Shown: one piece after another, positions 12,706 to 20,899 of the stretch
How the letters are laid out: each line of letters opens with the position of its first letter
Numbering within the stretch: the stretch's first letter is position 1
Assembly (NCBI GenBank): GCA_902806175.1
Contig: CADCVQ010000152.1
Location: forward strand, 1 to 47,069
Length of the DNA stretch: 47,069 nucleotides
From: an uncultured Solirubrobacteraceae bacterium
GTDB lineage: Bacteria; Actinomycetota; Thermoleophilia; Solirubrobacterales; Solirubrobacteraceae
Reading direction: 5' to 3'
The notes under the pieces: generated by a model
Told to the model about the DNA's origin: nothing
Database searches by the model: none
Seen by the model: the letters and a program-made list of their open reading frames with translations, nothing else
Program-made: the position numbers and the translations under genes

Positions 12706-14133
12706 TCAGCCGCCGAGCAGTCGGCTGACGCGCTGCAGCAGAAACGGTCCGAGCGTGCCCGCGAACAGCGACGTGATGTGCGTCGTGTCCTTGTGGACGA
12801 GGACGCCTCCGACGACCGGAAAGCACACGCGCTTTCCGCACATGAAGTCGTTGAGGTCCACGACATGCGTACGGCGCGAGCCGTCGCGGCGCGCGGCGAC
12901 TGCGGCGGCGTCGCGGCGCACGGCGCTGCGGCGGCTGAGCGCGCACGCGGTTGCGGCGGATCGGCGCTGCCTGATCGCGCGCTCGACGCAGAACGGTGAG
13001 TCCTTCGTGCTGTACGGCGTGTCGCGCAGGACGATGATCCGCCGCACGCTGCGGGGAAGCCGGCGCCAGGCGCGCATGTAGCCCTGGATCTTGTATGTCT
13101 CGCGATGTCTGCCGCGGGGCGCGCGGACGCCGGCGCTGGCGAGCTGGGAGACGAAGACCGTCTGCACCTGCGGATGGCGGACGAGCCACTGCCGCACGGC
13201 GCGCCGCCATTCCTCACAGCTGCGGCGCCGCGCCGCAGGGAGGTCCGGCGCGGCGGTCGAGTACGGGCAGCCGCTGCGCGTCAGCGAGAAGCCGCGCCAC
13301 GAGCGCGCCTGCGCGACGACCTCGGTCGCGCCGCGCCAATGCGCCGCGTGGCTGTCGCCGATGAGTGCGATCGTGCGGTTGGCGATCGCCGCGCGCACGC
13401 CGAACTGGCACGTGTACGGCAAGCGGGTCGACACGATCGTGCAGCGCGCGTTCGGCGACAGCGCAGCCACCTCCGGGGTTGGGATGACCGCGCCGCGCAG
13501 TTCGTCGTTGCGGCAGCGGTAACGGGGGTTGCGCGACGCCGCGCCGAGGCAGCGCGGCTCGGCCAAGGGTCTGATCTGCGCGCGGACGACGCCGTTGTCG
13601 GGCGACAGGTCGTTGCACGTGGCTGGTCCCGTGCAAGACCACGTCGACTGCGCCTGCCAGGAGTACGGGCCCTGGCGCAGGTTGATCGACGACGGCTCGA
13701 GCAGTGCCTCCACCGAGCGCTTGTCGCGGCGAAAGACGGTCGCCCCGATGATCCGGTTCTCGACCGGCTGGCCGAACGGATCCAGCCGCGAATACGTCAG
13801 CCCCGGCTCGTCGGCGCCCTTGTCATAGACGCAGACGACGCCGCGCGGCGTGCGCAGCGCGCCGTAGAAGATCTTCACGCACAGCGCGCGCCCCTCGATC
13901 GAGGACAGCTGCGCGAGCTCCCATTCGCCCGCCGTCGCGATGCGCAGGACCAACTCGGTTCCGCGCTGGCCGAACGCGACCGAGCGCAGGTCCAGCGGAC
14001 TGTCGGACACGTCGGCCTCGTCGGCGTGCGGGAGCGGCTCACGGTTGGGTGCTGCCGCAGCGCTCGCAGCCGTCAGAAAGACTGCAAGCAATGCAGATGA
14101 GAAGATGCTGAGGATTCGGCCGGCGGCGATCAC
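12706..14133 (-). CDS. Secreted SGNH-domain protein
   Basis: 475 residues, GTG start, with a signal peptide over about 28 residues (hydrophobic IFSSALLAVFLTAASA then AAA). The first 230 residues form a Cys-containing region I do not recognise. ALIGDSHAAHWRGATEVV near residue 255 is the SGNH block I with the nucleophile Ser. HKDTTHITSLFAGTLGPFL near the C-terminus is the block V Asp-x-x-His pair. This is the C-terminal SGNH domain usually fused to OafA/YrhL acyltransferases, here without the membrane acyltransferase half. It could act as an esterase or acetyl transferase on exported glycan outside the membrane. The family assignment is good; the role is inferred. Confidence 0.8.
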   Translation of the reverse strand: MIAAGRILSIFSSALLAVFLTAASAAAAPNREPLPHADEADVSDSPLDLRSVAFGQRGTELVLRIATAGEWELAQLSSIEGRALCVKIFYGALRTPRGVVCVYDKGADEPGLTYSRLDPFGQPVENRIIGATVFRRDKRSVEALLEPSSINLRQGPYSWQAQSTWSCTGPATCNDLSPDNGVVRAQIRPLAEPRCLGAASRNPRYRCRNDELRGAVIPTPEVAALSPNARCTIVSTRLPYTCQFGVRAAIANRTIALIGDSHAAHWRGATEVVAQARSWRGFSLTRSGCPYSTAAPDLPAARRRSCEEWRRAVRQWLVRHPQVQTVFVSQLASAGVRAPRGRHRETYKIQGYMRAWRRLPRSVRRIIVLRDTPYSTKDSPFCVERAIRQRRSAATACALSRRSAVRRDAAAVAARRDGSRRTHVVDLNDFMCGKRVCFPVVGGVLVHKDTTHITSLFAGTLGPFLLQRVSRLLGG

Positions 14134-17928: not shown

Positions 17929-18486
17929 TCAGCCCGGCGCGATCCTGCCGCAGGCGACGCGCGCCCCGCTGTCGCCGGTGTCCAGCGTCTCCTGGTCGGG
18001 CCCGTTGGGGGCATAGCGCGGCGGGATGTTCGCGAAGTTGTCGGGACCCGCGTGGACCATCACGGCGCTGCCGTCGCGGTCGCGCAGGTCGCCGAACGTG
18101 AAGCCGTCGGTCGTCAGGCGCAGCGACGCCATCCGGTTGCGCTTGACGAGCAGCGACGGCATGTCGCCGTCGTGCGCGCCGTGCGGCTCGCCGGCCGCCT
18201 TGAGGTGACCCATGGCCGACTTGAAGTCCGGGCCCTCGCACTTGCCGACGGCATGGACGTGGAAGCCGTGGAAGCCCGGCTTCAGGCGGGCGCTGACGCG
18301 GACGTCGACCGCGCTGCGGGCGGACGCGGCGGTCATCCGGACGGTGCCGACGGACTTGCCGTCGGCGTCGCGCAGCTTGACGGTCAGCGAGCGTGAGTCG
18401 TCGCCGCGCTGCGCGAAGCCGGTGACGGCGAGTGCGCAGCATGCGGCGACGGCCGCCGCGAGAGCAGTGAAGAGACGTAGGCGCAT
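17929..18486 (-). CDS. Secreted Cu/Zn superoxide dismutase-like protein
   Basis: 185 residues with a signal peptide of about 25 residues ending near VTGFAQ. HGFHVHAVGKCEG supplies the first two Cu ligands (HxH) and a Cys able to form the intrachain disulfide with the Cys in ARVACGRI. AMGHLK, EPHG and AHDGDMP match the bridging His, zinc His residues and zinc Asp. AVMVHAGPDNF supplies the last Cu ligand. All metal ligands appear present in order. The product would dismutate superoxide outside the membrane. It is convergent with yebC and upstream of the dikinase gene in the same direction, 70 bp away. Confidence 0.88.
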   Translation of the reverse strand: MRLRLFTALAAAVAACCALAVTGFAQRGDDSRSLTVKLRDADGKSVGTVRMTAASARSAVDVRVSARLKPGFHGFHVHAVGKCEGPDFKSAMGHLKAAGEPHGAHDGDMPSLLVKRNRMASLRLTTDGFTFGDLRDRDGSAVMVHAGPDNFANIPPRYAPNGPDQETLDTGDSGARVACGRIAPG

Positions 18487-18556: not shown

Positions 18557-20467
18557 TTACTCGACCCAGGGCCGCGCCTGCTTGACGACGAGGCCGCCGT
18601 CGGCGCCGAACTTGAACTCCACATCCATCGCGAAACCCTCGTCGTCCTGCTTGTCGTAGACGACCTTGAAGCGCTCCTGGATCGTCTCCAGGGCCGCCGT
18701 CAGCACCGCGAGCTGCTGCGCCGACAGGACGGGCCGGCCGTCCTGCGTCAGCGTCGAGCGCCGGATGTACTGCGTCTCGTACTCGCCGCGCGGCCCGATC
18801 GCCGAGACGAGCAGCTCGTCGGGCGTCGCGTTGGGGTCCGGGTTCGTCACGAGCGACTCCCCGACCTGGACGTTGACGTAGAACCCCGGCCAGTTGGGGT
18901 CGTAGGGGTTCTTGGTCACCGCCACGCCGTTGGCCGCTTCGTCGTCGAAGTTCGGGTGCACGAGCACGCCCATCGCCGCGCTGAGGTGGTCGATACGGTG
19001 AAACTCGCGCTCGTCGTAGGCGCGGAAGTTCCACAGCGACGCCCACACCTGCTTGACGGTCTTCGACAGCGCGCCCTCGTCGGGCCGGTGCGTATAGGAG
19101 TCATACAGGCCCGCGCCGTTGAAGCCCTCGAGGTCCTCGTTGTTCGTCGACGAGCGGCAGCGGATCCCGGTCGCGCCTGCTGGGAAGCGCGCGTGCAGAT
19201 CGGCGATCTGCTGCTCGAGCCCGCCGGCCAGTTCGGCCTTCTTCATCTTCTTGCGCAGCTGCGCGAGCGCCTCGTCGCGCCGCTGCGGGTCCGCCGCGAG
19301 CCCGGCATCCTCGACGATCGCGCGCGCGGCATCGTAGAAGCCGCACTCGGACATGAAGCGGTCATAGAACGAGAACGGGATCGCGTAGCCGTCGGGGACG
19401 ACGCCGGCGGGCAGCATCGTGCGCAGCTCGGCGACGTTCGCCGCCTTGGCGCCGACGCGCAGCACGTCCGCATGGCGCACGTCGTCGAGGTCGACGATCT
19501 GCGTCGCGCTGAGGTCGCGCGGCGGCGTCTGCGGCTGCCGCGGGCGGATCTGCTCCAACCAGGCAGCAACCTCCTGCGCCGTCGCGGGGGCGAGCGTGAA
19601 GTCCTCGGGCGTGACCTCGTAGCGCACGACCTGGCCGAGCAGCGGCGCGATCCGCTCGTGCGTCAGCGCGTCGCGGACGTAGGCGTTGGGCGTGTCGTTC
19701 TGCTTGGCCTTGAGGTTGATGTGCGACAGGGGCGTCTGCGGCGTCGCGCTGATGACGCCCGCGACGTGGCCGAGGTCGTTGGGCAGCGTCGTGAACACGG
19801 GAACGTCGCGGATCGTCGGCGGGCGGCCGGACGTCGGATCGACGGAGCTGAGCACGCCGAAGCCCGCACCCGCGTTCAGCGCGACGTAGGAGACGTTCGC
19901 GTAGAGCTCCTTCGTCGAGATCGAGCGCACCCCGTGCCGCTGCAGCTCGGCGGCATCCTTCGCGAACAGCGCCTCCTGCGTGTCGCCCGCCGGGTGGTAG
20001 GCGAGCTTGGCCGCGGCGAACGCCATCGCCGCGCCGACGAGCTCGAACGCGAGCGCTACGAGGCGCGCGGGAACCGGGTCGGTCGGCCAGAACTCGAGCG
20101 CGTAGAGACCCTGCTCCCGGCCGCCGCCGACCGGTTCGAAGCGGTCGTGGGCGATGATCGTCCCGGCGAGGTTCGAGCGATCGTCGCGGAAGTACGTCAC
20201 CGCGTTGAACTGCGCGAGCGGTGACCGCACACCGAGGACGCGCGCCGCGAAGTCGTAATGAAACGCGAACTGCTTGGTGTTGAGGAAGTACAACTGCGGG
20301 CGCGGCGAGTCGACGCCGAGGATGAGCAGCTTGCACTCCTCGGCGGCGAGCTGGCCGGGAACGTCGTCACGACGCGCAAGCGTCTCGAACGTCGCGCGGT
20401 CGGGCACGCTGCGGGCGCCGTGCGAGAGCGGCAGCTCTCTTGCTGCCAAGAGATCGGTCGTCGTCAT
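18557..20467 (-). CDS. PEP/pyruvate-binding-domain dikinase with GWD-like domain order
   Basis: 636 residues from ATG 20467, preceded by GGAGG about 11 nt upstream. Residues 1-200 form an N-terminal domain I do not recognise (LLILGVDSPRPQLYFLNTKQ, then FHYDFAARVLGV). Next comes TPLSHINLKAKQNDTPNAY with H249, resembling the phosphohistidine swivelling-domain motif (LSHxxxxAR). Then GAKAANVAELRTMLP and GIRCRSSTNNEDLEGFNG, with GAGLYDSYTHRP, form the ATP-binding PEP/pyruvate-kinase domain. The last strand DVEFKFGADGGLVVKQARPW closes the ATP-grasp fold. The order, His domain before the ATP domain and no PEP-binding TIM barrel, is that of glucan water dikinases rather than PEP synthase or PPDK. 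The acceptor is unknown and no carbohydrate-binding module is recognisable. Phosphorylation of glycogen or another glycan is inference. Confidence 0.78.
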   Translation of the reverse strand: MTTTDLLAARELPLSHGARSVPDRATFETLARRDDVPGQLAAEECKLLILGVDSPRPQLYFLNTKQFAFHYDFAARVLGVRSPLAQFNAVTYFRDDRSNLAGTIIAHDRFEPVGGGREQGLYALEFWPTDPVPARLVALAFELVGAAMAFAAAKLAYHPAGDTQEALFAKDAAELQRHGVRSISTKELYANVSYVALNAGAGFGVLSSVDPTSGRPPTIRDVPVFTTLPNDLGHVAGVISATPQTPLSHINLKAKQNDTPNAYVRDALTHERIAPLLGQVVRYEVTPEDFTLAPATAQEVAAWLEQIRPRQPQTPPRDLSATQIVDLDDVRHADVLRVGAKAANVAELRTMLPAGVVPDGYAIPFSFYDRFMSECGFYDAARAIVEDAGLAADPQRRDEALAQLRKKMKKAELAGGLEQQIADLHARFPAGATGIRCRSSTNNEDLEGFNGAGLYDSYTHRPDEGALSKTVKQVWASLWNFRAYDEREFHRIDHLSAAMGVLVHPNFDDEAANGVAVTKNPYDPNWPGFYVNVQVGESLVTNPDPNATPDELLVSAIGPRGEYETQYIRRSTLTQDGRPVLSAQQLAVLTAALETIQERFKVVYDKQDDEGFAMDVEFKFGADGGLVVKQARPWVE

Positions 20468-20899
20468 CGGATGCTCGCCTCCGCGTTGGAGATCGGTCTG
20501 TGTACGGCCGACTGTACGCCCGGCGAGGACGGATGTGTGATGACTTCGCGCGCAACGTCGCGGGAGCCCGCGCGCTGAGCTCATGTGACGTATGCGCCCT
20601 TCATCCGCGCCGAGGGTCGCGTTCGAGCACCGCGGCCCTTCGTTCTTCGGCGACCATAACGAGTTCGCTCGCCGTCGAGAAGGCCGTCTTTGTCGGCCGA
20701 TCTCAACGCCCCTGCGTAGGACCCGCAAACTTGACCTCGACCCAAGGTTGAGCTGTCGCTCAGCGACCGTATGCGCCGCTGTCGAGGTCGGCTTGGCGCA
20801 GGCTGCTGCGGCCGGTGCACCCGCGGCGTCTACCCGTGGGGCACGGCCGTTGCCGCATTGCAGGCGCAGGCCTTCGCGCGTTAGCGTCCCGGACCACAT
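20468..20899. promoter_or_regulatory. 432-bp divergent intergenic region with two possible operators
   Basis: No convincing gene here. Near the dikinase start, TGTACG occurs twice 12 bp apart (20501-20506 and 20513-20518). Farther out, CTCGACC-CAA-GGTTGAG at 20736-20752 is a 17-bp dyad with one mismatch and is close in style to MerR-family sites. TTGACC overlaps its left arm at 20731-20736. The rest of the stretch is less regular than neighbouring coding DNA and may contain decayed sequence. Confidence 0.35.

What the first reader, a model, noticed from the sequence alone, without database searches (positions are those of the whole stretch)
18557..20467. Bacterial dikinase with glucan-water-dikinase-like domain order
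The phosphohistidine-type motif (LSHINLKAK, H249) comes before the ATP-binding domain, and the motif SSTNNEDLEGFNGAGLYDS resembles the GWD/PWD version more than PPDK. No PEP-binding barrel follows. The N-terminal 200 residues are unfamiliar and might bind the acceptor. A bacterial glycan (glycogen-like) dikinase would be notable; the acceptor is unproven.
Basis: partly seen in the sequence, partly recalled or inferred. Interest (0 to 1): 0.7.

Follow-up and report, generated by a model that had tools for sequence, protein, structure and literature searches.

The report
Bacterial His-first dikinase, acceptor unknown
This gene encodes a bacterial enzyme predicted to move phosphate from ATP through a histidine on a swinging domain to an unknown target, with its domains ordered as in plant starch-phosphorylating enzymes; many relatives in other bacteria appear to be exported from the cell, which is unexpected for an ATP-using enzyme.

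Summary
Window 18557-20467, minus strand, is a real 636-residue gene with no PEP-binding barrel. The order is N-domain (13-192), swivelling phosphohistidine domain (193-299, H249), ATP-grasp domain (320-636). H249 and the ATP-site residues K341, R438, E617, Q630 and R632 are invariant in 41 homologues. AlphaFold2 (mean pLDDT 90) places 320-636 on rifampin phosphotransferase and PEP synthase ATP-grasp domains (Z 29-30) and 193-299 on known swivel domains (Z 10.7). The isolated N-domain (pLDDT 95) finds no fold match in the PDB.

The GWD-like domain order is supported. The glycogen or glycan acceptor is not: no Pfam starch-binding module, no recurrent glycan-metabolism neighbours, and no member reaches Pfam's cut-off for the GWD phosphohistidine domain (best 25.2 of 27 bits). 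About 23 of 40 homologues carry likely signal peptides, so those could not reach cytoplasmic glycogen. A distant Streptomyces relative of the same layout sits between an ATP-grasp protein and an MFS transporter.

Best reading: a dikinase (ATP to His to acceptor, giving AMP) whose N-domain binds an unknown hydroxyl acceptor, from a widespread, apparently undescribed bacterial family with cytoplasmic and apparently exported branches.

The parts
18557..20467 (-). Dikinase gene, 636 aa, start ATG at 20467
20478..20482 (-). Ribosome-binding site GGAGG, 10 bases upstream of the ATG
   Evidence: CAACGCGGAGGCGAGCATCCGATG
19892..20431 (-). N-domain, residues 13-192; proposed acceptor-binding domain; polar residues K46, H70, R97, E125 and D130 invariant
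   Evidence: invariance; pLDDT 95; no fold match; acceptor role inferred
19571..19891 (-). Swivelling phosphohistidine domain, residues 193-299
   Evidence: Z 10.7 to S. aureus pyruvate kinase C-terminal domain and to the RPH swivel; GWD1_pHisD
19721..19723 (-). Codon of H249, proposed phosphate carrier
   Evidence: invariant; position
18560..19510 (-). ATP-grasp domain, residues 320-636, with K341, R438, E444, E617, Q630, R632
   Evidence: PPDK_N; Z 29-30; invariance
17929..18486 (-). sodC (Cu/Zn superoxide dismutase), 70 bp downstream; neighbour only, not conserved next to the dikinase

Best explanation
A three-domain dikinase. The C-terminal ATP-grasp domain binds ATP and phosphorylates H249 on the middle swivelling domain, with AMP and phosphate as final by-products. 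The swivel domain then moves to the N-domain, which holds a hydroxyl-bearing acceptor, and hands over the phosphate. Shown here (by sequence and prediction): the gene, the domain order, the two catalytic domain folds, the invariance of the catalytic residues. Inferred: that the N-domain binds the acceptor, that AMP is produced, and that the acceptor is more likely a small molecule or another hydroxyl compound than glycogen.
For: ATP-grasp fold matches RPH 5hv1 (Z 30.0, rmsd 2.6, 292 residues) and PEPS 2ols (Z 29.0), and the swivel fold matches over 193-299 (Z 10.7). H249, K341, R438, E617, Q630, R632 invariant over 41 homologues and over nine deeply divergent relatives. The equivalent domain of longer relatives is recognised as the PEP-utilizer mobile domain (L121, E 9.4e-6). 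The N-domain holds invariant polar residues typical of an active site. RPH and HpeHI work with one ATP domain, one acceptor domain and one swivel domain (PMC4844700, PMC12167813). A relative with the same layout lies in a Streptomyces operon-like row with an ATP-grasp protein and an MFS transporter, which suggests a small-molecule acceptor there.
Against: No assay exists. The N-domain has no known fold to support acceptor binding. The Streptomyces relative is only about 26-30% identical, so its substrate need not be the same. Exported homologues keep the whole ATP site although little ATP is expected outside the cytoplasm, which this mechanism does not explain.
Confidence: 0.72

Rival explanations
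1. A true bacterial glucan dikinase: same chemistry, with glycogen or a related alpha-glucan as acceptor, and a prokaryotic relative of plant GWD/PWD.
For: Same domain order as GWD/PWD; GWD1_pHisD is the Pfam model that hits the H-domain in 14 of 41 members; ATP-loop wording close to GWD's as recalled from memory (a lead only).
Against: No starch-binding module; all GWD1_pHisD scores below the cut-off of 27 bits; no recurrent glycan-metabolism family among the neighbours shown; homologues with signal peptides could not meet cytoplasmic glycogen.
Confidence: 0.1
2. A ligase-like enzyme that uses the phosphohistidine relay to activate an acid or hydroxyl for condensation, as in the prodigiosin ligases PigC and RedH, so that the phosphate does not stay on the product.
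For: PigC and RedH models hit the ATP domain (E 4.7e-15 and 2.1e-13, far below cut-off). The Streptomyces relative is adjacent to an ATP-grasp ligase-like protein and an MFS transporter.
Against: PEPS and RPH models score higher on the same region, so this is the shared ATP domain only. No second substrate domain is recognised.
Confidence: 0.12
3. A regulatory or structural protein that kept the fold but lost catalysis (pseudoenzyme).
For: Exported members would meet little ATP outside the cytoplasm.
Against: ATP-site residues and H249 are invariant across exported and non-exported members alike.
Confidence: 0.06

Closest known systems
[quoted passage not shown]
   Same: Phosphohistidine domain ahead of a C-terminal ATP domain; H-domain is detected weakly by Pfam GWD1_pHisD
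   Different: No CBM45/CBM20 or other starch-binding module, much shorter, below the GWD1_pHisD cut-off, N-domain without a fold match, exported relatives; no GWD structure exists for comparison (PMC12892837)
Rifampin phosphotransferase (RPH)
   Same: ATP-grasp and swivel folds, proposed one-acceptor-domain dikinase mechanism (PMC4844700)
   Different: RPH order is ATP, acceptor, His; here acceptor, His, ATP. NCBIfam score 64 against a cut-off of 999
PEP synthase and pyruvate phosphate dikinase
   Same: ATP-grasp domain (Z 29 to 2ols) and swivel domain
   Different: Order ATP, His, PEP barrel in those enzymes; no barrel here; NCBIfam score 89 against 598; separate clade in the ATP-domain tree
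Two-component aromatic dikinases HpeHI, CreHI, PpsAB
   Same: ATP-grasp component HpeI matches residues 320-636 (Z 23.7); His relay to a small acceptor (PMC12167813)
   Different: Split into two proteins, with a different acceptor domain

Membership tests
GWD/PWD | Phosphohistidine domain located N-terminal to the ATP domain | tested here: met
   H249 domain 193-299, ATP domain 320-636
GWD/PWD | Phosphohistidine domain above the Pfam GWD1_pHisD cut-off (27 bits) | tested here: not met
   13.8 bits for the window protein's segment, best member 25.2
GWD/PWD | Starch-binding module (CBM45 or CBM20) at the N-terminus (an N-terminal carbohydrate-binding domain is missing also in some red-algal GWDs, PMC8703398) | tested here: not met
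   No Pfam match in residues 1-182; none in 41 members
GWD/PWD | ATP domain groups with GWD/PWD in a tree | not testable with these tools
   No real GWD/PWD sequence could be fetched
GWD/PWD | Transfers the beta-phosphate of ATP to alpha-glucan | not testable with these tools
   Needs an assay
PEP synthase / PPDK | C-terminal PEP/pyruvate-binding barrel and order ATP, His, barrel | tested here: not met
   Protein ends three residues after the PPDK_N match
Rifampin phosphotransferase | Order ATP, rifampin-binding, His; NCBIfam equivalog cut-off | tested here: not met
   64.1 bits against 999; order differs
Dikinase superfamily (ATP-grasp plus swivelling phosphohistidine domain) | ATP-grasp fold of PPDK_N type with intact catalytic residues | tested here: met
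Dikinase superfamily (ATP-grasp plus swivelling phosphohistidine domain) | Swivel-domain fold with an invariant histidine | tested here: met
   Z 10.7 over 193-299; H249 invariant

The most novel reading that the evidence does not exclude
A previously undescribed bacterial dikinase family with an acceptor domain of a new fold, one large branch of which is exported and carries out ATP-dependent phosphorylation outside the cytoplasm; its architecture may also mark the prokaryotic stock from which plant GWD/PWD arose.
Probability: 0.3. Interest if true: 0.8.

Novelty: new variant of a known kind. Interest (0 to 1): 0.58.

Why it matters
GWD and PWD start starch breakdown in plants, and no clear homologue was found in the cyanobacterium closest to plastids (PMC6805951). 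A bacterial family with the same domain order makes the origin of GWD testable. The enzyme that puts phosphate on glycogen is unknown (PMC13011383), so a bacterial candidate is worth an assay even at low odds. The apparently exported homologues raise a sharper question: what a complete ATP-dependent phosphotransferase does outside the cytoplasm.

Tried and rejected
Glycan context: scanned 107 neighbouring proteins from diverse loci; the commonest family occurs three times and none of the 25 shown is a glycogen enzyme (families beyond the first 25 not seen). Partnership with sodC: absent beside the orthologue in a sister species. Partnership with CotH kinase: adjacent in Akkermansiaceae, but CotH occurs 27 to 77 times in several such genomes, so adjacency means little. 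Phage or defence link: no viral contig, no PADLOC match. Fold of the N-domain: Foldseek best E 0.68 and VIA Z at most 4.9, top rows being polyphosphate kinase 1; this neither shows nor excludes a new fold. The ATP-loop resemblance to GWD beyond the Pfam test rests on memory and is kept as a lead only.

Full report
The gene. The ORF at 18557-20467 on the minus strand is real. It has a Shine-Dalgarno sequence, high third-position GC, and third-position-weighted divergence from two sister species. A scan finds 77 related loci in Solirubrobacteraceae, Myxococcota, Planctomycetota, Verrucomicrobiota, Chlamydiota, Pseudomonadota and a cyanobacterium. The distribution is patchy: full-length copies in three of seven genomes of the window's genus, three of 396 Actinomycetota including two remote ones, and three of 194 genomes in the phylum of a Verrucomicrobiota member.

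Anatomy. Pfam sees only PPDK_N at 337-633. AlphaFold2 with 41 sequences gives mean pLDDT 90.3 and pTM 0.87. Residues 320-636 superpose on RPH (5hv1, Z 30.0), PEPS (2ols, Z 29.0), HpeI (9goj, Z 23.7) and PPDK (1dik, Z 22.0). Residues 193-299 superpose on the C-terminal phosphohistidine-like domain of S. aureus pyruvate kinase (3t05, Z 10.7, 98 residues), and a stretch within 109-295 on the RPH swivel (5fbu, Z 10.7). H249 starts the helix 249-256, as expected for this domain. The N-domain 13-192 folded alone has pLDDT 95 and matches nothing convincingly in the PDB.

Conservation. Over 41 sequences H249, K341, R438, E444, E617, Q630 and R632 are invariant. By family knowledge K341, R438, E617, Q630 and R632 correspond to the ATP-site residues K22, R92, E323, Q335 and R337 of PPDK; this mapping is from motif position, not from a superposition that I could inspect. 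The N-domain has invariant K46, H70, Y92, R97, E125, W127 and D130. Nine deeply divergent sequences still share H249 and the ATP-site set.

Relation to GWD. The H-domain is hit by Pfam GWD1_pHisD in 14 of 41 members (best E 9.8e-5) and by PEP-utilizers (PF00391) in none. No member reaches the GWD1_pHisD cut-off, and longer relatives with the same layout hit PF00391 instead, so the domain lies between the two models. A quick tree of ATP domains gives the family as one side of a branch (support 90), apart from 12 PEPS-like proteins. Long branches limit what can be said about the other relatives, and no GWD or PWD sequence could be included. The protein therefore is ordered like GWD/PWD and probably works like them in its chemistry, but I do not file it as a member.

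Export. Twenty-three of 40 homologues have a likely signal peptide by a simple hydropathy rule. The rule fired in 0 of 161 internal segments and in 80 of 800 codon-shuffled upstream regions. These members lie in Verrucomicrobiota, Planctomycetota and gammaproteobacteria, mostly methanotrophs. A planctomycete member carries a proprotein-convertase P-domain ahead of the dikinase (E 3e-19), and others have DTDGDG linkers, with a very weak TSP3_bac hit in two. The window protein, its sisters and the Myxococcota members show no signal peptide. No dedicated predictor was available. One Verrucomicrobiota genome has at least seven near-full-length paralogues.

Context. In the window the gene is followed by sodC at 70 bp and faces a RibD_C-type reductase. 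In a sister species it sits at the same YebC-RuvC position without sodC; in another it is elsewhere, followed by what looks by eye like an aminotransferase gene. No conserved neighbour was found in the wider family. Two Streptomyces plasmids carry a relative of the same layout between an ATP-grasp protein and an MFS transporter, with a divergent PAS regulator.

Literature. No paper found describes this family. RPH work describes a large unexplored group of small-molecule dikinases (PMC4844700), and HpeHI shows that acceptor domains vary (PMC12167813). The held part of a 2024 review on prokaryotic alpha-glucan enzymes does not mention a dikinase.

Verdict. The domain-order finding is right and the protein is very likely a working dikinase. 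A glycan acceptor is unsupported and somewhat disfavoured. The unexpected part is the wide family with an acceptor domain that matches no solved fold and an apparently exported branch that keeps its ATP site.

Noticed in passing
L011, L014, L024, L027, L046, L059 (N-termini): Homologues carry signal peptides and, in L011, an extracellular-type P-domain, yet keep all ATP-site residues: apparently exported dikinases.
   Followed up: partly
genome G049 (that of L074), loci L112, L118, L126, L129, L131, L133: One Verrucomicrobiota genome holds at least seven near-full-length paralogues of this dikinase, and 77 CotH kinase matches.
   Followed up: partly
L138 10505-15185 and L139 10499-15326: Streptomyces plasmids: conserved row of ATP-grasp protein, same-layout dikinase and MFS transporter, with a divergent PAS regulator; looks like a small-molecule pathway.
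   Followed up: partly
L024 1416-5543: Lamin-tail plus CotH kinase gene directly upstream of the dikinase in Akkermansiaceae: two apparently exported phosphotransferases side by side.
   Followed up: partly
L069 3357-5717: The dikinase of a gammaproteobacterium carries an insertion of over 100 residues in its ATP domain, after the position of window residue 375.
   Followed up: no
window 12706-14133: SGNH-domain protein (E 2.8e-30) of the kind usually fused to acyltransferases, here alone.
   Followed up: no
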